From NCBI GenBank assembly GCA_944324655.1, contig CALUXF010000005.1, forward strand, positions 1 through 64,000: DNA of 64,000 nucleotides. Direction: 5' to 3'. This document shows positions 41,763-54,848 of the stretch, one piece after another. The first letter of the stretch is position 1. Each line of letters opens with the position of its first letter. The position numbers and the translations under genes were made by a program. The notes under the pieces are model-generated. The model was not told where the DNA came from. It did no database searches and saw only the letters and a list, made by a program, of their open reading frames with translations. The DNA is from Candidatus Avelusimicrobium aviculae. GTDB taxonomy: Bacteria > Elusimicrobiota > Elusimicrobia > Elusimicrobiales > Elusimicrobiaceae.

Positions 41763-42290
41763 ATGGCAATACGCAAAATTGTAAAATACGGCGATGATAT
41801 CCTGCGCCAAAAATTAAAACCGGTGGACTACAACGCCCTGGCGCCGGAACTGCCCCTATTATTAAAAGATATGGAAGAAACCTGCCTTTCCGTTCGCGGG
41901 GTGGGTTTGGCGGCCAACCAGATTGGTTTGCCGTACCGGTTGGCGGTTATTTTAATACCGGATACTTCTTCTAAAGATGAAAACGCCTACAAGCGTTATG
42001 TGATTATTAATCCGCAGATTATTTCCATGCGGGGGGAAAAGCTGGAGGAAGAGGGGTGCCTGTCCCTGCCCGGTTTATGGGCGGAAGTAACCCGCGCCAC
42101 AGATGTTACCGTTTCTTTTTTGGATGAAAACGGAAAAGAACAAACCTTGCGCGCGCGCGGCTTGCTTGCCAAGGCCTTCCAGCACGAGGTGGACCATTTA
42201 GACGGAAAATTGTTTATAGATTTGGTGGACCCCACTTTAAAGCCGGAACTAAAAAAAGCCATTAAAAAATTGCGTAAAGATTGGAACTAG
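41763..42290 (+). CDS. def: Peptide deformylase
   Basis: 175 aa. Removes the formyl group from nascent chains. All three motifs: 'GVGLAANQIGL', 'EEGCLSLPG', 'QHEVDHLDG' (metal Cys and two His). ATG at 41763 directly follows the extended -10, so the mRNA is probably leaderless. Confidence 0.96.
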   Translation: MAIRKIVKYGDDILRQKLKPVDYNALAPELPLLLKDMEETCLSVRGVGLAANQIGLPYRLAVILIPDTSSKDENAYKRYVIINPQIISMRGEKLEEEGCLSLPGLWAEVTRATDVTVSFLDENGKEQTLRARGLLAKAFQHEVDHLDGKLFIDLVDPTLKPELKKAIKKLRKDWN

Positions 42291-42347
42291 CGGATTGGCT
42301 CAAAAAGCGATTTGCGCCTGTTGCTTCTTTGCCGTAATAAATATTTC

Positions 42348-42376
42348 TTGCATCGTTCGTTTTTTTTTAATACACT
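42348..42376 (+). promoter_or_regulatory. Promoter of the lysA leader
   Basis: TTGCAT (42348-42353), 17-bp spacer with nine consecutive T, TACACT (42371-42376). Start point predicted near 42383. Confidence 0.5.
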
Positions 42377-42382
42377 AAGCGT

Positions 42383-42475
42383 ATGTTGATTATTTCTTTT
42401 GTTAAACGCGCAGCTAAACAGAACAAGAGCAAAAAGTGCTCTTGCGGTTTGGCTTGTGCTTTAGCGGAAAAATAA
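42383..42475 (+). CDS. Lysine-rich leader peptide of the lysA operon (candidate)
   Basis: 30 codons (too short for a usual ORF list). Lys at 8, 12, 15, 17, 18 and 30, including the pair at 17-18; three Cys follow. It sits 70 bp before lysA and ends 25 nt before a terminator. The mRNA can fold GCTAAA (42413-42418) with TTTAGC (42460-42465); a second hairpin CAAGAGC/GCTCTTG (42424-42444) has Lys17-18 in the loop. CTTTAGCGG (42459-42467) can alternatively pair with CCGCTTAAG (42504-42512) in the terminator's 5' arm, one mismatch. That is the logic of ribosome-mediated attenuation. The ATG is at the predicted transcription start, so it would be leaderless. It could instead be an unrelated small Cys-rich peptide. 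Confidence 0.5.
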   Translation: MLIISFVKRAAKQNKSKKCSCGLACALAEK

Positions 42476-42500
42476 GAAACCACTTTATTGTTTAGTTAAA

Positions 42501-42529
42501 CCCCCGCTTAAGTACAAGCGGGGGTTTTT
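42501..42529 (+). terminator. Terminator upstream of lysA (attenuator)
   Basis: Perfect 9-bp stem CCCCCGCTT/AAGCGGGGG, 6-nt loop, five T. It lies between the leader peptide and lysA with no promoter after it, so lysA-aspartokinase transcription probably must read through it. Confidence 0.8.
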
Positions 42530-42545
42530 AATTTAAGGAGAAATT

Positions 42546-43796
42546 ATGTGTTTTACCTACCATAACGAAGAATTATTTGCCGAAGGAGTGGCCTTACATA
42601 AACTGGCCGAAGAAGTGGGCACCCCGTTTTATTGCTATTCTTCCGGCAAACTGGCCGGCAATTTTCAAGCCTATCAAAATGCGCTTGGGAATTTTAACCA
42701 TACGGTTTGTTATTCCGTAAAAGCCAACCCCAATTTGGGCGTTTTAAAAACGCTTGCGCGGCTGGGCAGCGGGGCGGATGTGGTGTCTGCGGGGGAAATG
42801 TACGTGGCTTTAAAAGCGGGTATCCCGGCGGATAAAATTGTGTTTTCGGGGGTAGGTAAAACCAAAGAGGAGCTGGAAGAAGCCATCAAAACCCAAATTT
42901 TGCAAATTAATGCCGAATCCATAGCGGAAGTGGAAACCATCAACCGCCTAGCTATTGATTTGGGTTTAAAAGCCAATGTGGCGTTGCGCGTTAATCCGGA
43001 CGTGGACGCCCTCACCCATGTAAAAATATCCACCGGTAAACAAGGAGATAAATTCGGCGTGGATTGGGACGACGCCCTCCCGCTTTACCGCGCGGCCGCC
43101 CGTATGCCGGGTATCCGCTTGGCCGGGATAGCGGTACATATTGGTTCCCAATTATTGGACTTGCAGCCGTTTCGTTTGGCTTTTACCAAAATTGCCCAAA
43201 TGGTGCGTGAACTGGAAAAAGAAGGCATTGTATTACAAAATATAGACCTAGGCGGCGGCTTGGGCATTAATTATAATGTGGAACTCCCTCCCACCTGTGA
43301 GGCGTATGCCGAGGTGGTGCGTGAAACCCTGGGCGATTTAAACAAACATATTATTGTGGAGCCTGGCCGCAGCATTACCGGCAATATGGGTATTTTGGTT
43401 ACCCAGGTGCTGTATACCAAGCAAATGGGGGAGAAAAACTTCATTATCGTGGACGCGGGCATGAATGACTTGGTCCGCCCCGCTATGTATGACGCGTGGC
43501 ATACCATTTTACCGGTGGAACGCCGCGGCATCGCCCCGATTATTGCCGATGTGGTGGGGCCGATTTGCGAGTCCAGCGACGTGTTTGCCAAAGACCGCAT
43601 TATAGAGCCTGTCCAACAAGGCGAGCTACTTGCTATAATGTGTGCTGGGGCCTATGGGGCGGCCATGTCTTCCATATATAATTTCCGCCCGTTAGTGCCT
43701 GAGGTAATGGTGCACGGCGAAGAGTTTTGCGTTGTTCGCCGCCGTACTTCTTACGAGGAAATGCTGTCCGGCCAGCACGTGCCGCAGTGGATATAA
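42546..43796 (+). CDS. lysA: Diaminopimelate decarboxylase
   Basis: 416 aa. Last step of lysine biosynthesis. PLP Lys in 'CYSVKANPN', 'HIGSQ', 'LGGGLGI', 'EPGRSI', and the active-site 'CESSD' and 'GAYGAAMSSIYN'. Normal length. AAGGAG precedes the ATG, just after the terminator. The next gene, an aspartokinase, starts about 10 bp after its stop. Confidence 0.97.
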   Translation: MCFTYHNEELFAEGVALHKLAEEVGTPFYCYSSGKLAGNFQAYQNALGNFNHTVCYSVKANPNLGVLKTLARLGSGADVVSAGEMYVALKAGIPADKIVFSGVGKTKEELEEAIKTQILQINAESIAEVETINRLAIDLGLKANVALRVNPDVDALTHVKISTGKQGDKFGVDWDDALPLYRAAARMPGIRLAGIAVHIGSQLLDLQPFRLAFTKIAQMVRELEKEGIVLQNIDLGGGLGINYNVELPPTCEAYAEVVRETLGDLNKHIIVEPGRSITGNMGILVTQVLYTKQMGEKNFIIVDAGMNDLVRPAMYDAWHTILPVERRGIAPIIADVVGPICESSDVFAKDRIIEPVQQGELLAIMCAGAYGAAMSSIYNFRPLVPEVMVHGEEFCVVRRRTSYEEMLSGQHVPQWI

Positions 43797-43805
43797 AGGA
43801 TGAAT

Positions 43806-44534
43806 ATGAAAAAAATTTGCATTATGAAATTTGGCGGCAATACGCTGGCTAACAAACAAAAACTGCTGCAAGCGGCGCAGTTGATTAAATCCCGCTATGA
43901 GTCGGGCTTTATTCCGGTGGTGGTGGCTTCAGCCAACGGCAACTTGACGGACGTTTTGCTGGACCACGCTTACAGCATTGCCGCCAACCCGGAAAAGAGA
44001 GAACTGGATATGCTGGTTACCACCGGGGAGCGGGTCAGCGTGGCGCTGTTATCCATCGCGCTTAGGGCGGTAGACGTGCCCGCCATATCGCTTACGGGAA
44101 GCCAAATCGGTCTGATTACCACTGGCACGCATACCGGGGCGGATATTCTTTCTTTGAAAGGGGACCGCTTGGTGCGGGAAATCCAGCAAGGGCATGTGCC
44201 GATAGTGGCCGGCTTTCAGGGGATAGGGGAAAATAAAGAAATTACCACATTAAAACGCGGCGGGAGCGACGTGTCTGCCGTGTTTTTGGCCAGCCAGCTG
44301 GGCGCCAATCACGTGGAAATGGTGAAAGACGTAGACGGAGTTTACTCCGCCGACCCTAATAAAGACGTAAAAGCCCAGCGCTATGAAGTGCTTGATTTTG
44401 ATGAAATGTATAAACTGGCGTTAAACGGGGCCAATGTGCTGCATCCGGACGCCGTCCTTTTGGCTAAGGCCAAAGGGGTGGAAATACGCATTGTGTTTTA
44501 TCAAACCGGGCAAACGGGAACCGTGATTAAGTAG
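43806..44534 (+). CDS. lysC: Aspartokinase, catalytic domain only (no ACT domains)
   Basis: 242 aa. Phosphorylates aspartate, the first step toward Lys, Thr, Met. Kinase motifs 'MKFGGNTL', 'TTGERVSVALL', 'GFQGIGENKEITTLKRGGSD', 'KDVDGVYSADP'. The protein stops right after the catalytic domain; the ~150-residue tandem ACT part that gives feedback inhibition in most aspartokinases is absent. ATG 43806 has AAAGGA 5 nt upstream. Cotranscribed with lysA. Confidence 0.9.
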   Translation: MKKICIMKFGGNTLANKQKLLQAAQLIKSRYESGFIPVVVASANGNLTDVLLDHAYSIAANPEKRELDMLVTTGERVSVALLSIALRAVDVPAISLTGSQIGLITTGTHTGADILSLKGDRLVREIQQGHVPIVAGFQGIGENKEITTLKRGGSDVSAVFLASQLGANHVEMVKDVDGVYSADPNKDVKAQRYEVLDFDEMYKLALNGANVLHPDAVLLAKAKGVEIRIVFYQTGQTGTVIK

Positions 44535-45422: not shown

Positions 45423-48400
45423 ATGAAAAATAAAAACCTTGAACCTATAGCCATAGTGGGCATAGGCGCTATCATGCCCGGAGCTTTAAATAAAGACGAG
45501 TTCTGGAACAATATTAAAGAAGGAAAAAACTGCATTACCGAAATCCCCAAATCCTACTGGGACTACAACCTGTTTTACAGTCCTGACCACAAAGCCGAAG
45601 ACAAGACCTATTCCAAAATCGGCGGTTTTATACCTGAAACGTTTAAATTCAACTCTATTAAATACCGCATTCCTCCGCAAGTGGCCAAACAAATGGACAC
45701 GGTGCAACACTTAGCCGTGGAAACCACCCGCATGGCGCTGGAAGACGCCGGTTATGACAAAAAAGAATTTGACCATAACCGCACCGCGGTTATTATCGGC
45801 AACTCTATGGGCGGCATGAAGAACGAGATGTCCAACACCCGTTTAAACCGCCCCTTTTTATATGAAATTTTGAAAAATACGGAAACGTTCAAACACTTAA
45901 ACCCGGCGGACGCCCAAAAAATGATGGACGAAATGGACGCCGGCGTGCGCGAACGTTTTATCCCTATTACCGAAGACTCCATGCCCGGAGAGTTGGCCAA
46001 CGTTATTCCCGGCCGCGTAGCCAATGTGTTTGATTTGCACGGAACCAACTTTGCCGTAGACGCTGCCTGCGCCACCTCTTTGGCGGCTATTGACCAAGCC
46101 GTAAACGGTTTGCGCATGGGTAATTTTGATATGGCCATAGCGGGCGGTGTGGACCAGATGATGTCTCCCTCCGCTTACATTAAATTTTGCAAAATCGGTG
46201 CTTTGTCTGAAACGGGTTCTTATCCGTTTGACGCTCGCGCCAACGGATTTGTTATGGCGGAAGGCGCCGGCATGGTGATTTTGAAACGCTTGTCCGACGC
46301 GGTAAAAGACGGAGACAGAATTTACGCCGTCATCCGCGCGGTGGGAGCTTCTTCCGATGGGAAAGGCAAAGGCATCACCGCCCCCAACCCCAAAGGGCAG
46401 AAACTGGCGGTGGAAAAAGCCTTTGAACAGCTGGACTATACCCCCGGCGAAGTGGGTCTTTTGGAAGCCCACGGTACCGGCACCCGCGTGGGTGACGCTA
46501 CCGAGCTGAACGCCTTAAACGAAATTTTTGCCCCGTATGCTAAACCCGGCAGCATTGGCTTAGGCAGCGTGAAGAGCCAAATCGGCCACGCCAAAGCGGC
46601 GGCGGGTATCGCTTCCTTAATTAAGACCTCCTTGGCCTTATATAATAAGGTATTGCCCCCTTCCATCAATTTTGAAACCCCCAACCCCATTGTGGATTGG
46701 GCCACCTGTCCCTTCCGCGTAATTACCAAAACGCAGGACTGGACCAGCGACAAAGTGCGCCGCGCCAACGTTTCCGCCTTCGGTTTCGGCGGGACGAACT
46801 TCCACGTAGCTATGGAAGAAATGAACGACGCCTTACTCAAAAAAGAAGAAACCAAAGTTTGTGCCTCAGCCGTAACCCCTACTAAACAGGAGAATGTAAA
46901 CATGACCAGCAGTAATTCCTATACGCTTCACGTTCCGGGGGAGAAAATCCAAGGTGACGTTTTGACCTTCTCCGCCGCAACAAAGCAGGAACTTTTTGAC
47001 GTTTTGGACAAAGCCGTGGTGGCCATTCAGTATGACCCGGCCTACTTGCCCAGCATTTCTTATAAAAACCACGTAACCAAACCGCAGAAGTTTGCCGTAA
47101 CCATTAACGTGGAAAGCCCGGAAAAATTAAAAGAAAAAATTGAATTTTTCAAAAAAATCGCCGGTACGCAGGACGTATGGGAACAAGAATCTCTGTATTT
47201 AAGAATGAAAGGCATTTATCCGTTTACTCCTACGGAAATTAAACCCAAAGTATGCTTTATGTTCCCCGGCCAGGGTTCCCAATATGTGGACATGATGAAA
47301 GACTTGGCCTCCAAATACAAAGTAGTGCAGGATACGTTTGACGAGGCTGACCGCCTGCTTATGGGCATTATCGGCCAAACTTTAACCGAAACGTTATGGA
47401 GCAAACCCGGCGAAACCAAAGAACAAATTGCCGTGCGTGAAGCCGCCATTAAGAAAACCGAAATGACCCAGCCCGCCGTGCTGACGGCGGATATCGCCAT
47501 GATGCGCTTGCTGTCTTCCTTTGGCATTAAGCCGGATGTGGTCATGGGCCACAGCTTGGGCGAATACGCCGCCGCGGTAGCCGCCGGTATCTTTGATTTT
47601 GAAAACGGCTTAAAAGCCGTATGCACCCGCGGGAAGGTAATGTCTGAAATTAAAGTGGAAGACAACGGCAAGATGGCTTCCATCGCCGCCCCGGTGGAAC
47701 GGGTGGAACCGGAATTGGCCCGCATCAGCGGTTATGTGGCCGTAGCCAACAAAAACTGCCCCACCCAAACGGTTATTGCCGGCGCCAGCAAATCTATTGA
47801 CGATGCCATTAAAATGTTTACCGATATGGGCATACAGGCGGTACAAATCCCGGTGTCTCACGCTTTCCACTCCGCCATTGTGCGCCCGGCTATGCCGCAG
47901 TACCGCGCGTTTTTGGATACGCTTACTTTCCATGCGCCCACCATGCCCATTACCACCAACGTTACGGCGGAATTTTATCCCAGCGACCCGGAAAAAATCA
48001 AAGACCTTATGGTCACGCAGATTTCCCACTCCGTGGAATGGATTAAACAGCTTAAGACCACCTATGATTCCGGCGTTCGCTTATTTGTAGAATGCGGCCC
48101 TAAACGCGTGCTTTCCGCCTTGGCTTCCAGCACCTTGTCTGACAAGAAAGACATTAAAGTGCTGGCTTCCAACCATCCTAAAAAAGGCGGCATTTGCGAA
48201 TTTAACGACCTATTTGCCAACTTAATTTCTTCCGGCATCGGTTTAAATTGGACTGGAACCGATATGTATGGGGACCATTCCACTTATAACCCCGCTTTTG
48301 TAAACTGGGTAACCGGTACGGCTACACCAGTGGAAAAAGAGCTGGGCGCTTCCTGCTCCTGCCAGGCTGCCCCTGCCCAAGCTTCCGGCAAGAACTGCTG

Positions 48401-51400
48401 TGATAAAGAAGTAGTAATCAGCGGTATTGCCGCCGGCGGCCCCGGCAGCTGGGACCGTATCTTCCGCGACGGAGTATTGGACGAAATCCTCTCCGGCCGT
48501 AACTTGATTGAGCCCGTTTCCGCCGATATCCAACAAAAACAAATTGATAAACACGTAGAATTTGTTATCAAATCCAAAGACGGAAACCACCGCTTTGAAC
48601 GTTTGACTTCTCCCAGCCAAGCCATTAAATTGGCAGCCAAGGGCGGCGCGTTTGACGCGGAAAAAGAATTTGGCCTGCCGGCCAAATGGGTGCGCTCTAT
48701 GGACCGCTCCTTCCAGCTGGCTATTGCCGCCGGCATTTTGGCTTTGAAAGACGCCGGTATTCCGCTGGTGCTTTACTATAAACCCACCTCCACGGGCGGC
48801 TATTTGCCGGACCGCTGGGGTCTGCCGGCGGATATGATTGATGACACCGGCGTCATCTTTACTTCCGCTTTCCCCGTGGCCAACAGCATGATGGGGGATT
48901 TATCCAAACGCGTGGCCGGTTTGCTTAACAACAAAACCGCCAAAGAAGTACGCGCTTTCTGCGATAAATTTATCGCCCAAATTTCGGACCCGGCCCTCAA
49001 AGCGGAAATTGAAGCCTGGTATAATGAAAACTTTAAAGACAAAGAAGTGGAACCCCAGTCTTTTACGTCTGAATTTGTCTTAAAAACCATTATTATTGCC
49101 CACTCTCACTTCTGCCAGTGGATTCGCGCCCGCGGGCCGGCCACTTCCATGAGTGCGGCCTGCGCCTCCACGGCTCAAGCCCTTGCCGTAGCGCAGGACT
49201 GGATTAAGCTGGGCCGCGCAAAGAGAGTTATTGTCATCAGCGCGGACGATATTACCAATGACAATGTATCCGAATGGATTTTAACGGCTTTCTTAGCCTC
49301 CGGCGCCGCCACCACGGAAGCCGATGTAACCAAAGCCGCCCTGCCTTTTGACCGCCGCCGCAACGGCATGATTGTGGGTATGGGCGCCGTGTCTTTAATT
49401 GTAGAAGACGCGCAGGAAGTAGCCAAACGCGGCATGAAGCCGCTTGCTAAAGTGTTGGCTACGGAAATCCGCAACAGCGGTTTCCACGTAACCCGTTTGG
49501 ACGTAGGCCACGTGGCCCAGGTAATGAATGACTTGGTGACCGAGGCCGAACGCAAGAGCGGCGTTTCCCGCGGCGATATCGCCAAACAGTTGGTATTTAT
49601 CTCTCATGAAACGTATACCCCGGCCCGCGGCGGTTCCGCCAGCGCGGAAGCGTATGCGCTTAAATCCACCTTTGGCAAAGATGTCAGCAGTGTCATCGTC
49701 AGCAATACCAAAGGGTTTACCGGTCACTCTATGGGCGCCGGGTTGGAAGACGCCATTGCCGTACATTGTTTAAACACGGGTTTGGTGCCGCCTATCGCCA
49801 ACTTTAAAGAAGCGGACCCGGAACTGGAAGGCATTACCCTTAGCAAAGGCGGGCATTATAACTTTAAATACGCGCTTAGATTGGCGGCCGGTTTCGGCTC
49901 TCAGCTGGGTATGACTTTGTTGGAAAAAGTGTGGGACGTAAAAGAACCCCGCATTGTAGACGCCGCCCGCCACGAGGCTTGGCTGAAAGAAATTTCCGGT
50001 CAGCAAGCCCCGGTGTTGGAAGTGGTGCAGAACACCCTGCGCGTAAAAGATAATTATAAACACGGTGTGAAACCTTCTTTAATTATGGAAGGTTCCCAAG
50101 CGTTTGTGGATAAAGTAAATTCCATTCATCACACCGCTCCTGCTGTAGCCGCCCCTGCGGCTCAGCCTGCGCCGGCTTCTGTACAAGCGGCCCCGGCCGC
50201 TCAACCGGCTCCTGCGGCTCAAGCCGCTCCTGTTGCGGCTTCTAAGCCTATGCCGTCTTTGAACGAAGCCGATGTGCAAGCCAATATCTTAAACATCATT
50301 TCCGAAAAAACCGGCTACCCGCAGGACATGTTGGACTTGGATTTAGATATGGAAGCGGACCTGGGCATTGATACGGTAAAACAAGCCGAACTGTTTGCCA
50401 TTATGCGTGAGACGTATCATATCGCGCGTCAAGAAGGCGTACAGCTCAAAGACTACCCGACCATTCGCTCCATTATTAAATACGCTATGGCCAATGCGGG
50501 AAGCGAAGGCACTGCCGCCGCGGCTCCCGCCGCTCAGCCGGCCCCTGCGGCTCAACCCGCTGCCGCGCCTGTACAGGCTGCTGCGGCCCCGGCTTCTAAA
50601 CCGATGCCTTCTTTGAACGAAGCCGATGTGCAAGCCAATATTTTAAACATCATTGCCGAAAAAACCGGCTACCCGCAAGACATGCTGGACTTGGACTTAG
50701 ACATGGAAGCGGACCTGGGCATTGATACGGTAAAACAAGCCGAACTGTTTGCCATTATGCGTGAGACGTATCACATCGCGCGTCAAGAAGGCGTACAGCT
50801 CAAAGACTACCCGACCATTCGCTCCATTATTAAATACGCTATGGCCAATGCGGGAAGCGAAGGCACTGCTGCCGCCGCTCCTGCCGCTCAGCCTGCTGTA
50901 GCCCCTGCGGCTCCCGCTCCGGCGGCCCCGGCCCCCGCGGCTCAGCCTGCGCCAGCTCCTGTACAAGCGGCTCCTGCCGCGGCTTCTAAGCCGATGCCGT
51001 CTTTGAACGAAGCCGATGTGCAAGCCAATATTTTAAACATCATTGCCGAAAAAACCGGCTACCCGCAGGACATGCTGGACTTGGACTTAGATATGGAAGC
51101 GGACTTGGGTATTGATACGGTAAAACAAGCCGAACTGTTTGCCATTATGCGTGAGACGTATCACATCGCGCGTCAAGAAGGCGTACAGCTCAAAGACTAC
51201 CCGACCATTCGCTCCATTATTAAATACGCCATGGCTAACGCGGGAAGCGAAGGCGCTGCCGCCGCTCCTGCTGCTCAGCCCGCTGTGGCGGCTCCGGCCC
51301 CTGCTCCGGCTGTGGCTCAGCCCGCGCCGGCTCCTGCGGCGCAAGCGTCCGCCATGCCTTCTTTGAAAGAAGAAGACGTAACCAATAATATCCGCTCTAT

Positions 51401-54400
51401 TATTGCCGAAAAGACTGGTTACCCGCAAGACATGTTGGACTTGGATTTAGACATGGAAGCGGACTTGGGTATTGATACGGTAAAACAAGCCGAACTGTTT
51501 GCCATTATGCGTGAGACGTATCACATCGCGCGTCAAGAAGGCGTACAGCTCAAAGACTACCCGACCATTCGCTCTATTATTAAATACGCCTTGGCCAACG
51601 CGGGAAGCGAAGGCGCTGCCGCCGCGGCTCCCGCCGCTATGCCCGTTGCGGCCCCTGCGGCCCAGCCCGCGGCTCCGGCTCCTGCCGCTCAACCCGTGTC
51701 TGTTGCGGCGCCGGCTCCTGTATCGGCTCCGGCCGCTAAACCGGCCGCCGGCAAGTTAGACCCGGCCCAAGTGACCGAAGAAATCGTAGCCATGGTAGCG
51801 GAAAAGACCGGCTATCCCAAAGACATGCTGGATTTGGATTTAGACATGGAAGCGGACCTGGGCATTGATACGGTAAAACAAGCCGAACTGTTTGCCGCTA
51901 TGCGCGAACATTACGGCATTGCCCAGCAGGAAGGTATCCAACTGAAGGATTATCCTACCATCCGCCACTGCATTAACTTTGCGTTGAACGCGGTAAATAA
52001 TCCGTCCGCTCCTGCCGCTGCGGCCGCACCTGCGGCCCCTGCGGCTCAAGCCCCGGCGGCCCCCGCTGCGCAAGCCCCGGCTGCGGCTGTGGCCGCGCCT
52101 GCCGCCCCGGCCAAACCGGCCGCGGCAAAACCGGCTGTTGTCAGCAAGCCTACGGCGGAACACATCGGCAAACCGGCTGAAGACGCGTTAACCACCAACC
52201 CCACGGCGCCTATTGTACGCCATGAGTCTTTGGCGGAACGCCCAGAAGCCCCCGGTTACAAAGGCGAACACTGCCACGAAAAGAAACTTCGTTATGTAAC
52301 CATGGCGGCCGATGCCCCGCTGACGGAACGCGAAAACCGCCGCCTGTCTAAGGACCGCACCGTACTCATTTTTGCCGATAACTCCCAGCTGATTAAAGCC
52401 TATCAGGAAGAATTTAAAGAACTGGGCGTTAAAACGCATGTATTCACCACGCTTAAAACCCGCAGCAAAAACACCACCATTGTAAATTGGGAATCCTATG
52501 AGGAAACCGAAGCCGCTTTGAAAGAATACGCGGCCGAAGATCCAAACATACAGGGTATTGTGTACTTGCTGGGGGCCAGCGTAAAGAAATTTGACAAAAA
52601 AGCCAGCCCGCACGCTGAACTGACCAAATACGTCATGCCGTTGTTTATTGCCTTGCGCGTGTTTGAAAAAGGCCTGTCTAACCGTCAGGACGCGGACACG
52701 TTCTTTGCCGTAAACACCAAGATTGACGGTAACTTTGGTTACAGCACCAAAGAAGAGTTCAACCCCATTGTGGGCGCGTTGACCGGCGGCACCACCTGCT
52801 ACCGCAAAGACGTGTATGAACGCACCGGCGCTATTTCCAAGTTAATAGACTTTGAAAGTGATGCCACCCCGGACGATATGGCCCAAATCACCATGGACGA
52901 AGTACTCCACGGCGATATGCGCCTGATGATCGGCACCAAAGACAAAGTGCGTTCCACCATCTTGTCCGTGCCCATGCAGCTGGACCGCAGCGTAAAACAC
53001 TTTGACTTAGCCGGCAAGACCATTATCTTCACCGGTTCGGGCCGCGGTATCGGGGCGATGCTTGCGCAAAAGATTGCCGCCCAGTACCACAGCAAAATCA
53101 TCGTGCTGGATATTATTGAAATCCAGGAAAAAACGCCGCTGTGGGCCACGATGAACGAATCCGAATTGGCCGCGCTTAAGAAACAAATGTGGGAAGACAT
53201 GCGCGCCGACCATACCCAAAAAGCCACTCCCGTGATGTTGGAACGCGCTTTTGGCCGGGTGAAAGATTCCGTAACGCTCTACAACAACCTGCAGAAACTG
53301 CGCGAGTTGGGCAGCGAAGTGGAATACTATCACTGCGACGTGATGAACTCTTCCATGATGAAAGAAGTCTGCACCAAGATTAAGGCCAAAAACGGCCGTG
53401 TGGACGGACTCATCCACTTTGCCGGGTTGGAACGCTCCAAACTGATTTATGACAAAGACCCCATGGAATATTACCGCATTTTTGACGTGAAGGCCACCAG
53501 CTTTGCTTCCTTCTTGGCCAATAATGTGGTGAAAGATAAAGGCTTCTTTGCCTTTGCCTCTTCCATCGCGGGCAAATACGGCAACTTGGGCCAGAGCGAC
53601 TACGCCAGCGCCAACGACTACTTGGCTAAGTCCGCCTTGTCCTTGTCCAACCAAGGTTACCGCGCTATCAGCATTGCCATGAGCGCCTACAAGAACGTAG
53701 GCATGGGCGTGCGCGCCGGTGTGGAAACCTTCCTGCGCTCCAACGGCGTAGACTTTGTGGACCCGGAAGACGGTATGCAGATTTTCTTGGACGAAATCGT
53801 CTACGGACGCGTGCCGGAAATCGTGCTCACCGGTTCTTTGGGCCGCTTGGATTGGGACCATCAGCTGCTGTTTGAAATGGACGAAATCGGAGCCGAACAA
53901 TCGTTCGGTTCCGATGATTCGGACGATAACAACACGCCGCAAAGCCCGGCCCCGGATGCCGGCTCTTCTTCCGCCCCTGCCGCCGCTCAACCCGCGGGGG
54001 ACGCCACCCACTTTTTGGGTGAAGTAAAAAAATTACAGGCCGGAAAAGAATTCCACGGGGAAAAAGAATTTAATTTAAAATCTGACCCGTACCTTTCTGA
54101 CCACGCCATTGAGGGCACCCCCTATGTACCGGGCGTAATGGGCATAGAAACCTTTATGGAAACGGCCGCCGCTTTAACGGGCAATGTGCCGCAAGGGTTG
54201 AAAGACGTACACTTCTTCCTGCCTATTAAGCTGCTGCGCAACCGCCCGCAGGCCGTGCGCGTGATTGGTGTTTCTGACGGGAAAAACGCCAGCATGGAAA
54301 TAGAGTCTGACTTTATTAACAGCAAAGGCGTTAAAATGGGCAATACCCGCCGCCATTTTACGGCTAAGACCTTGTCTTCTTTCACCTCTACTTGGGACGA

Positions 54401-54848
54401 AGTAAAAAACAACATCAATTTGGATGTGAACGCCGCCCCGGTGGTAACCAAAGAAGAAATTTATAAAAAATATTTCCACGGGCCCAGCTTCCAGGTTTTG
54501 GGAGGGATTTTGCGTGTGAACGAAAAGGAATCCCTGGCCGTTTACAACACCACCCCCAAGCCGCAGTGGCCGGCGCCTAAAGCCTTGTTGGCTAACCCCA
54601 TGCTGATTGAGGCCGCTTTCCAATGCTGCGGTTTCCAGGATATGAGCGTTGCCAACAAAATGACTTTGCCGGACGGCATTAAAGAAGTGGCCGTGTTTAA
54701 GCGGGATGTTCCTCCGCAGACGCTGTACCTCTACGGCGTAAACAAAGGGCTGACGGCTGACGGCAAAACCCTGCATGACGCTTATGTGTTTGACGAACAG
54801 GGCAACGTGTGGGTTGAATTCCACGGTTACCAGGCTATCGGCCAGTAA
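45423..54848 (+). CDS. Multidomain polyketide/secondary-lipid synthase KS-AT-KS-ACPx5-KR-DH
   Basis: 3141 aa, PUFA-synthase/HglE-like iterative type. KS1 residues ~5-465: Cys216 (DAACATS), His350 (EAHGTGT), His389 (GHAKAAAG). AT ~605-930: Ser711 in GHSLGEY. KS2 ~990-1510: Cys1247 (SAACASTA), with 'SHETYTP' and 'GHSMGAG' supplying the two His. Five ACPs, whose attachment position is Thr at 1651, 1769, 1899, 2019 and 2150 (LGIDTVKQ), joined by Ala/Pro linkers. A structural region ~2230-2520, then KR ~2528-2810 with 'TGSGRGIGA', Ser in 'SSIAG' and Tyr in 'SDYASAN'. DH ~2865-3141: 'DHAIEGTPYVPGV'; the second acid is Glu (LIEAAFQ) where modular DHs have Asp. No ER domain. Start ATG has TAGGAG upstream. 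The PPTase and a carboxylase subunit follow. The product is unknown. Confidence 0.93.
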   Translation: MKNKNLEPIAIVGIGAIMPGALNKDEFWNNIKEGKNCITEIPKSYWDYNLFYSPDHKAEDKTYSKIGGFIPETFKFNSIKYRIPPQVAKQMDTVQHLAVETTRMALEDAGYDKKEFDHNRTAVIIGNSMGGMKNEMSNTRLNRPFLYEILKNTETFKHLNPADAQKMMDEMDAGVRERFIPITEDSMPGELANVIPGRVANVFDLHGTNFAVDAACATSLAAIDQAVNGLRMGNFDMAIAGGVDQMMSPSAYIKFCKIGALSETGSYPFDARANGFVMAEGAGMVILKRLSDAVKDGDRIYAVIRAVGASSDGKGKGITAPNPKGQKLAVEKAFEQLDYTPGEVGLLEAHGTGTRVGDATELNALNEIFAPYAKPGSIGLGSVKSQIGHAKAAAGIASLIKTSLALYNKVLPPSINFETPNPIVDWATCPFRVITKTQDWTSDKVRRANVSAFGFGGTNFHVAMEEMNDALLKKEETKVCASAVTPTKQENVNMTSSNSYTLHVPGEKIQGDVLTFSAATKQELFDVLDKAVVAIQYDPAYLPSISYKNHVTKPQKFAVTINVESPEKLKEKIEFFKKIAGTQDVWEQESLYLRMKGIYPFTPTEIKPKVCFMFPGQGSQYVDMMKDLASKYKVVQDTFDEADRLLMGIIGQTLTETLWSKPGETKEQIAVREAAIKKTEMTQPAVLTADIAMMRLLSSFGIKPDVVMGHSLGEYAAAVAAGIFDFENGLKAVCTRGKVMSEIKVEDNGKMASIAAPVERVEPELARISGYVAVANKNCPTQTVIAGASKSIDDAIKMFTDMGIQAVQIPVSHAFHSAIVRPAMPQYRAFLDTLTFHAPTMPITTNVTAEFYPSDPEKIKDLMVTQISHSVEWIKQLKTTYDSGVRLFVECGPKRVLSALASSTLSDKKDIKVLASNHPKKGGICEFNDLFANLISSGIGLNWTGTDMYGDHSTYNPAFVNWVTGTATPVEKELGASCSCQAAPAQASGKNCCDKEVVISGIAAGGPGSWDRIFRDGVLDEILSGRNLIEPVSADIQQKQIDKHVEFVIKSKDGNHRFERLTSPSQAIKLAAKGGAFDAEKEFGLPAKWVRSMDRSFQLAIAAGILALKDAGIPLVLYYKPTSTGGYLPDRWGLPADMIDDTGVIFTSAFPVANSMMGDLSKRVAGLLNNKTAKEVRAFCDKFIAQISDPALKAEIEAWYNENFKDKEVEPQSFTSEFVLKTIIIAHSHFCQWIRARGPATSMSAACASTAQALAVAQDWIKLGRAKRVIVISADDITNDNVSEWILTAFLASGAATTEADVTKAALPFDRRRNGMIVGMGAVSLIVEDAQEVAKRGMKPLAKVLATEIRNSGFHVTRLDVGHVAQVMNDLVTEAERKSGVSRGDIAKQLVFISHETYTPARGGSASAEAYALKSTFGKDVSSVIVSNTKGFTGHSMGAGLEDAIAVHCLNTGLVPPIANFKEADPELEGITLSKGGHYNFKYALRLAAGFGSQLGMTLLEKVWDVKEPRIVDAARHEAWLKEISGQQAPVLEVVQNTLRVKDNYKHGVKPSLIMEGSQAFVDKVNSIHHTAPAVAAPAAQPAPASVQAAPAAQPAPAAQAAPVAASKPMPSLNEADVQANILNIISEKTGYPQDMLDLDLDMEADLGIDTVKQAELFAIMRETYHIARQEGVQLKDYPTIRSIIKYAMANAGSEGTAAAAPAAQPAPAAQPAAAPVQAAAAPASKPMPSLNEADVQANILNIIAEKTGYPQDMLDLDLDMEADLGIDTVKQAELFAIMRETYHIARQEGVQLKDYPTIRSIIKYAMANAGSEGTAAAAPAAQPAVAPAAPAPAAPAPAAQPAPAPVQAAPAAASKPMPSLNEADVQANILNIIAEKTGYPQDMLDLDLDMEADLGIDTVKQAELFAIMRETYHIARQEGVQLKDYPTIRSIIKYAMANAGSEGAAAAPAAQPAVAAPAPAPAVAQPAPAPAAQASAMPSLKEEDVTNNIRSIIAEKTGYPQDMLDLDLDMEADLGIDTVKQAELFAIMRETYHIARQEGVQLKDYPTIRSIIKYALANAGSEGAAAAAPAAMPVAAPAAQPAAPAPAAQPVSVAAPAPVSAPAAKPAAGKLDPAQVTEEIVAMVAEKTGYPKDMLDLDLDMEADLGIDTVKQAELFAAMREHYGIAQQEGIQLKDYPTIRHCINFALNAVNNPSAPAAAAAPAAPAAQAPAAPAAQAPAAAVAAPAAPAKPAAAKPAVVSKPTAEHIGKPAEDALTTNPTAPIVRHESLAERPEAPGYKGEHCHEKKLRYVTMAADAPLTERENRRLSKDRTVLIFADNSQLIKAYQEEFKELGVKTHVFTTLKTRSKNTTIVNWESYEETEAALKEYAAEDPNIQGIVYLLGASVKKFDKKASPHAELTKYVMPLFIALRVFEKGLSNRQDADTFFAVNTKIDGNFGYSTKEEFNPIVGALTGGTTCYRKDVYERTGAISKLIDFESDATPDDMAQITMDEVLHGDMRLMIGTKDKVRSTILSVPMQLDRSVKHFDLAGKTIIFTGSGRGIGAMLAQKIAAQYHSKIIVLDIIEIQEKTPLWATMNESELAALKKQMWEDMRADHTQKATPVMLERAFGRVKDSVTLYNNLQKLRELGSEVEYYHCDVMNSSMMKEVCTKIKAKNGRVDGLIHFAGLERSKLIYDKDPMEYYRIFDVKATSFASFLANNVVKDKGFFAFASSIAGKYGNLGQSDYASANDYLAKSALSLSNQGYRAISIAMSAYKNVGMGVRAGVETFLRSNGVDFVDPEDGMQIFLDEIVYGRVPEIVLTGSLGRLDWDHQLLFEMDEIGAEQSFGSDDSDDNNTPQSPAPDAGSSSAPAAAQPAGDATHFLGEVKKLQAGKEFHGEKEFNLKSDPYLSDHAIEGTPYVPGVMGIETFMETAAALTGNVPQGLKDVHFFLPIKLLRNRPQAVRVIGVSDGKNASMEIESDFINSKGVKMGNTRRHFTAKTLSSFTSTWDEVKNNINLDVNAAPVVTKEEIYKKYFHGPSFQVLGGILRVNEKESLAVYNTTPKPQWPAPKALLANPMLIEAAFQCCGFQDMSVANKMTLPDGIKEVAVFKRDVPPQTLYLYGVNKGLTADGKTLHDAYVFDEQGNVWVEFHGYQAIGQ
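50233..52000 (+). repeat. Five tandem acyl carrier protein repeats in the synthase
   Basis: Five ~75-85 aa ACP units spaced 118-131 residues apart by Ala/Pro-rich linkers. Units 1-4 are almost identical at the DNA level over ~190 bp (for example the stretch after each GATACG codon), while unit 5 is clearly diverged. Such direct repeats can expand, shrink or be homogenised by recombination. They are also an assembly hazard. Confidence 0.93.

What the first reader, a model, noticed from the sequence alone, without database searches (positions are those of the whole stretch)
42383..42545. Candidate lysine leader-peptide attenuator in front of lysA-aspartokinase
Seen: a 30-codon frame with six Lys (a Lys-Lys pair in a hairpin loop), then a perfect terminator just before lysA. 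GCTAAA (42413-42418) can pair with TTTAGC (42460-42465), and the same segment (42459-42467) can instead pair with the terminator's 5' arm (42504-42512) with one mismatch. Stalling at Lys codons would cover GCTAAA, free the antiterminator and allow lysA expression; with lysine plentiful the ribosome would cover it and the terminator forms. Known: lysine genes are usually controlled by the L-box riboswitch or T-boxes, not by leader peptides. No L-box is visible.
Basis: partly seen in the sequence, partly recalled or inferred. Interest (0 to 1): 0.75.

Follow-up and report, generated by a model that had tools for sequence, protein, structure and literature searches.

The report
Lysine-codon leader-peptide attenuator before lysA
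In a family of gut bacteria (Elusimicrobiaceae), the lysine-making genes are switched by a short Lys-rich peptide whose translation senses whether lysine is scarce; the switch design is the textbook one for tryptophan or histidine, but lysine genes are usually controlled by a lysine-binding RNA (L-box) instead.

Summary
Window 42383-42545 carries a 30-codon ORF, a strong terminator and three mutually exclusive pairings (protector 1:2, antiterminator 2:3, terminator 3:4) in front of lysA and the genome's only recognised aspartokinase, which lacks its C-terminal ACT region. In the same genus, 34 of 35 genomes with lysA have the leader (the 35th has lysA cut at a contig end); none of 31 genomes without lysA has it. 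In 24 distinct leaders the only invariant residues besides Met are five lysines (K8, K12, K15, K17, K18), changing only AAA<->AAG. RNAalifold finds the antiterminator unprompted: 97.3% of cells paired, 5 pairs changed on both sides. Three leaders from two other genera, including a probable Elusimicrobium minutum, have diverged peptides yet keep many lysines and the antiterminator. Folding with the ribosome parked on a Lys codon gives antiterminator (34/34); ribosome at stop gives terminator (34/34). An orphan leader not before lysA has lost the antiterminator pairing. No L-box passes cut-off in 248 phylum genomes. New member of a known mechanism class (ribosome-mediated attenuation) with an uncommon specificity. 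From memory, one lysine precedent exists (Thermus). No expression data.

The parts
42348..42376 (+). Promoter: -35 TTGCAT (42348-42353), 17-nt spacer, -10 TACACT (42371-42376)
   Evidence: Same geometry (TTGC - about 17 nt - TATACT-like) in all 29 relatives aligned, with always 6 nt between the -10 hexamer and the leader ATG; pattern found only twice in the genome, controls 0
42383..42475 (+). Leader-peptide ORF MLIISFVKRAAKQNKSKKCSCGLACALAEK*, apparently leaderless (ATG at the predicted +1)
   Evidence: ORF in 29/29 relatives with complete upstream DNA; in-frame 3-nt deletion in L025-L028; codon differences conservative in frame 0 only (BLOSUM 0.96 vs -0.18 and -0.59; 3/200 column permutations as high)
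42404..42436 (+). Control Lys codons K8 (42404-42406), K12 (42416-42418), K15 (42425-42427), K17 (42431-42433), K18 (42434-42436)
   Evidence: Only residues besides Met invariant in 24 distinct leaders; every change there is AAA<->AAG
42397..42429 (+). Segment 1 (protector 5' strand, inside the Lys-codon region)
   Evidence: Duplex search and MFE fold; helix 1 of A1 83.6% paired with compensatory changes at 2 pairs
42424..42444 (+). Inner hairpin 42424-42431/42437-42444 with the Lys17-Lys18 codons in and next to its loop (possible pause hairpin)
   Evidence: 95.2% of cells paired over 24 sequences
42445..42468 (+). Segment 2: pairs with segment 1 (protector) or segment 3 (antiterminator)
   Evidence: RNAalifold consensus picks 2:3 unprompted; 97.3% cells paired, 5 pairs changed on both sides, 0/500 shuffles reach covariation score
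42503..42526 (+). Segment 3: 5' arm, loop and much of the 3' arm of the terminator, pairing partner of segment 2 in the antiterminator
42501..42529 (+). Intrinsic terminator (3:4): stem 42501-42509/42516-42524 and T-run 42525-42529
   Evidence: 92.6% of cells paired over 24 sequences
42535..42540 (+). Shine-Dalgarno AAGGAG of lysA
   Evidence: sequence
42546..43796 (+). lysA, diaminopimelate decarboxylase
   Evidence: TIGR01048 487 bits, cut-off 297.9
43800..44534 (+). Aspartokinase catalytic domain only (244 aa, no C-terminal ACT region); the only recognised aspartokinase of the genome
   Evidence: matches 1-241 of 407 in NF005154; single above-cut-off TIGR00657 locus; about 242-aa ORF follows lysA in relatives wherever complete

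Best explanation
It is a ribosome-mediated transcription attenuator of the trp/his type with lysine as the sensed amino acid. Transcription starts at or next to the AUG of the leader ORF, so a ribosome loads at the 5' end. If Lys-tRNA is charged, the ribosome runs through the five Lys codons to the stop codon and covers segment 2; the terminator (3:4) forms and RNA polymerase stops before lysA. If Lys-tRNA is uncharged, the ribosome stalls at one of the Lys codons, which all lie where a stalled ribosome covers segment 1 but not segment 2; segment 2 then captures segment 3 as it emerges, the terminator cannot form, and lysA and the aspartokinase gene are transcribed. Without translation the 1:2 protector forms and the terminator wins in most species. 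Shown by sequence comparison and computation: ORF, Lys conservation, the alternative pairings, link to lysA, geometry. Inferred: promoter and start site, translation, stalling, read-through, response to lysine.
For: Leader present in 34 of 35 genus genomes with lysA (35th truncated) and in 0 of 31 without. Five Lys invariant with synonymous changes only, while neighbours Q13, N14, S16 vary. L022 is frameshifted and L029 stops early after the Lys codons, yet segment 2 survives at RNA level. Antiterminator covariation. Diverged leaders in other genera keep Lys and pairings: MVNLISLKKAGIKIMGIKKSPYLSACDFVGK, MLTATVLKKAGKMTMGLKKAPYTFACDFADR, MLKNAKKTDSVKKGSKKTLGA. Folding with a parked ribosome as the terminator emerges (6 nt short): best Lys position 0.82-0.99 antiterminator in 34/34, at stop at most 0.06 in 34/34, no ribosome 0.10 or less in 29/34. 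The orphan leader in G038 contig 23, no lysA downstream, has no antiterminator pairing beyond chance, 156/500 shuffles. No L-box over cut-off in 248 phylum genomes.
Against: No expression, start-site or ribosome-profiling data. The low antiterminator value with the ribosome at stop is partly built in, because the model hides segment 2 there. In the complete RNA at equilibrium the terminator still wins in several leaders, including the window's own and L025-L028, so the model needs the antiterminator to form first during transcription. In G305, G095, G304, G048 and L015 the protector is weak before the terminator is complete. Lys enrichment by count alone is modest (P about 0.02 for the window's leader). 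Lys codons are dispersed, not a long run. G303 and the ~54%-identical lysA clade lack the leader.
Confidence: 0.9

Rival explanations
1. Nascent-chain sensor (arrest peptide): the peptide KRVSKQNKSKKCSC stalls the ribosome in response to free lysine or another small molecule, as TnaC or SpeFL do, and the same RNA switch follows.
For: Within the genus the peptide around the lysines is well conserved, more than a pure codon counter needs; the stall would use the same pairings.
Against: In the other genera (G268, G305, G095) the peptide has changed and mainly the lysines persist; conservation within the genus is explained largely by the RNA strands the codons must form.
Confidence: 0.05
2. RNA-only switch: an undescribed lysine riboswitch or a protein-bound antiterminator in which the ORF is incidental.
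For: Strong, covarying RNA structure.
Against: Conservative codon changes in one frame, in-frame deletion, ATG always 6 nt after the -10, invariant Lys with synonymous changes; no conserved multi-helix pocket; no match over cut-off to any Rfam family.
Confidence: 0.03
3. Ordinary terminator of the upstream def gene followed by a fortuitous short ORF.
For: def ends at 42290 and no other strong terminator lies between it and the leader promoter in the window.
Against: Leader and its promoter are conserved where the upstream sequence differs, including relatives with a separate terminator before the leader promoter, for example L007 and L014; segment 2 covaries with the terminator.
Confidence: 0.02

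Closest known systems
Ribosome-mediated attenuators of trp, his, leu, ilv, phe, thr operons in proteobacteria and actinobacteria (for example Vitreschak 2004, cited in PMC1273637; PMC1262725; PMC2659441)
   Same: Leader ORF with control codons for the pathway's product, protector/antiterminator/terminator series, terminator just before the first structural gene
   Different: Lysine is the control amino acid; Lys codons dispersed through segment 1 and the inner hairpin loop; Elusimicrobiota. PMC1262725 reports no conserved RNA element for lysine operons in Actinobacteria and assigns lysine to the L-box elsewhere
Lysine leader-peptide attenuator of the Thermus thermophilus lysine cluster (Tsubouchi et al. 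2005, J Biol Chem; from memory, paper not held)
   Same: Leader peptide with Lys codons controlling lysine biosynthesis by attenuation
   Different: Alpha-aminoadipate pathway (homocitrate synthase cluster) in Thermus, not diaminopimelate decarboxylase; homology not tested
Sinorhizobium meliloti trpL attenuator (PMC7298713)
   Same: Leader ORF starts at the 5' end of the transcript (leaderless)
   Different: Tryptophan; alpha-proteobacterium; its terminated RNA and peptide also act in trans, not known here
L-box lysine riboswitch (RF00168)
   Same: Controls lysA or lysC type genes by lysine supply
   Different: Binds lysine directly; absent here

Membership tests
Ribosome-mediated (trp-type) transcription attenuator | Short translated leader ORF before the operon | tested here: met
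   ORF conserved with coding signature in relatives; translation itself not shown
Ribosome-mediated (trp-type) transcription attenuator | Control codons for the end product placed so that a stall frees the antiterminator | tested here: met
   Five invariant Lys, ribosome-parked folding
Ribosome-mediated (trp-type) transcription attenuator | Mutually exclusive antiterminator and terminator, with protector | tested here: met
   protector weaker in five leaders
Ribosome-mediated (trp-type) transcription attenuator | Read-through responds to amino-acid starvation via tRNA charging | not testable with these tools
   needs experiment
L-box lysine riboswitch RF00168 | Match to the aptamer covariance model | tested here: not met
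   none in window or genome; none over cut-off in 248 phylum genomes while 4 control genomes ring
T-box leader | Match to the Rfam T-box model | tested here: not met
   no Rfam T-box over cut-off in window; none listed at E up to 1 in 42300-42600
Known Rfam amino-acid leaders (His, Leu leader) | Match over gathering score | tested here: not met
   His_leader 22 bits (needs 49), Leu_leader 17.7 (needs 50)
Arrest-peptide sensor (TnaC/SpeFL-like) | Conserved peptide sequence needed for stalling | tested here: inconclusive
   peptide conserved inside the genus, diverged except Lys in other genera
Thermus lysine attenuator | Sequence homology and pathway | not tested

The most novel reading that the evidence does not exclude
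A leaderless, lysine-codon leader-peptide attenuator is the main or only feedback on lysine synthesis by the diaminopimelate route in Elusimicrobiaceae: no L-box is found and the single aspartokinase has lost its regulatory ACT region, so sensing of charged tRNA-Lys stands in for both the riboswitch and enzyme feedback.
Probability: 0.4. Interest if true: 0.65.

Novelty: new member of a known kind. Interest (0 to 1): 0.58.

Why it matters
Lysine operons are the standard example of riboswitch control. Here is a family in a little-studied phylum that solves the same problem by ribosome stalling, on an operon joining the first and last steps of the pathway, with an aspartokinase that has no C-terminal ACT region. 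It supplies a clean comparative data set (34 leaders with covariation, loss of the leader with lysA, an orphan copy) and, if G095 is Elusimicrobium minutum as its size suggests, a cultured species in which to test it. It also adds to the short list of attenuators whose leader ORF starts at the 5' end of the RNA.

Tried and rejected
Second model hit in the window's genome (G000 contig 2, 29553-29690, E 8e-4): two ordinary terminators, no Lys ORF; rejected as chance. G304 (MNTNIKPFAKQLKDKSSIKRLDFLRS, not leaderless): pairing weaker (z -2.6) and no switch in the full-length equilibrium fold; kept only as a weak candidate. Lysine leaders upstream of 60 lysA genes outside the family: Lys-rich short ORFs occur, but none with a convincing terminator between the ORF and lysA (those flagged in L144 and L154 are not good terminators); my filter (at least 4 Lys and 17%) would miss some real leaders. 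Low-score Rfam matches (PyrR, His and Leu leader): far under cut-off, driven by terminator shape. Equilibrium folding of the full leader does not switch in every species; co-transcriptional truncation does. Literature searches found no report of this element in Elusimicrobiota, but the library lacks most subscription papers.

Full report
What is there. The window is contig C5 of a 1.62-Mb, 53-contig genome. Contigs carrying the same leader motif are mostly titled uncultured Elusimicrobiales or Elusimicrobium, a few only 'uncultured bacterium' and one a Bacteroidia bin, so I place the window in Elusimicrobiaceae. Downstream of def (41763-42290) lie a promoter, a 30-codon ORF, a strong terminator and lysA (TIGR01048), then a 244-aa aspartokinase that matches only the catalytic part of the family and is the only above-cut-off aspartokinase locus of the genome. 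The leader folds far better than its shuffles (z -7.0).

Conservation. lysA was sought in the genus and family and the DNA before it read. All 29 loci with full upstream DNA (the window's own included) have the ORF, always with 6 nt between a TATACT-like hexamer and the ATG. A covariance model of 24 leaders finds it in 34 of 66 genus genomes; these are 34 of the 35 with lysA, the 35th having lysA cut at a contig end, and none of the 31 lacking lysA. In a sample of 295 phylum genomes it is found only in this genus and in G268 of a sister genus.

Lysine codons. In the 24 distinct leaders K8, K12, K15, K17 and K18 are the only invariant residues besides Met; all changes at those codons are AAA<->AAG, while Q13, N14 and S16 between them change to H, I/D and G/A. 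Codon differences are conservative only in this frame. L025-L028 carry an in-frame deletion; L022 is frameshifted after the Lys codons and L029 stops early, but segment 2 is kept as RNA. In G268, G305 (another genus) and G095 (a third genus) the peptide is different but Lys-rich: 6/31, 5/31 and 7/21, the last with three Lys-Lys pairs.

Pairings. RNAalifold, given no structure, chooses the antiterminator (segment 2 with segment 3). Counted on the alignment it is 97.3% paired with 5 of 14 pairs changed on both sides and no shuffle reaching its covariation score; sliding it by one to three columns drops it to about 40%. Terminator and inner hairpin are 92.6% and 95.2% paired, the 1:2 protector 83.6%. 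Antiterminator energies beat shuffles in 18 leaders tested (z -2.6 to -6.2). The orphan leader in G038 contig 23, which has promoter, ORF and Lys codons but no lysA, has no such pairing beyond chance: the complementarity exists only where there is lysA to control. G038 has 6% contamination, so that contig may come from another species.

Mechanism. With a ribosome parked on Lys codons, and the terminator's last 6 nt not yet out, the antiterminator is the favoured structure in 34 of 34 leaders (best Lys position 0.82-0.99); [quoted passage not shown] with no ribosome it is 0.10 or less in 29 of 34. At equilibrium on the complete RNA the terminator wins back in some leaders, so timing matters, as in classical attenuators. 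The stop result is partly geometric: the stop codon sits so that a terminating ribosome covers segment 2. The leader appears leaderless; def and two other genes of the window look leaderless too, and a leaderless leader peptide is known in Sinorhizobium meliloti trpL (PMC7298713).

Where it is missing. G303 and a second, ~54%-identical lysA clade that mostly sits behind an ABC-transporter ATPase gene lack it, and 60 lysA genes of other families in the phylum show no convincing Lys ORF plus terminator. No L-box passes cut-off in 248 genomes of the phylum.

Known or new. The mechanism class is textbook. Lysine as the control amino acid is rare: from memory one case is published, in Thermus, for a different lysine pathway; that paper is not in the library. 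I found no report for Elusimicrobiota. I therefore file it as a new member of a known kind with unusual specificity. Everything about expression remains to be measured.

Noticed in passing
L065 (G038 contig 23, 12279-12414): Orphan copy of the leader (MVSLFFVKRVSKQSKSKKRFCVPACGN*) with promoter and a terminator but no lysA downstream; its upstream neighbour resembles that of the lysA locus of G048, suggesting lysA was lost and the leader remained (or a contaminating contig).
   Followed up: partly
genus g1: About half of the genomes of the genus (31 of 66) have no lysA, and none of those has the leader: repeated loss of lysine synthesis in gut lineages.
   Followed up: partly
43800-44534: Aspartokinase reduced to the catalytic domain (about 242 aa) and still following lysA in all relatives where the gene is complete; no other recognised aspartokinase in the genome.
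   Followed up: partly
41763, 32111, 57866 and G000 contig 8 near 55365: Genes without Shine-Dalgarno whose ATG lies 6-7 nt after a -10 hexamer: leaderless mRNAs seem to be in use in this genome.
   Followed up: partly
45423-54848: A 3141-aa multidomain polyketide or polyunsaturated-fatty-acid-synthase-like protein with several near-identical acyl-carrier repeats, downstream of the lysA operon (from reading the translation).
   Followed up: no
L093 (G304 contig 109): A different lysA clade with its own Lys-containing leader ORF (MNTNIKPFAKQLKDKSSIKRLDFLRS*) and terminator: possibly an independent lysine attenuator.
   Followed up: partly
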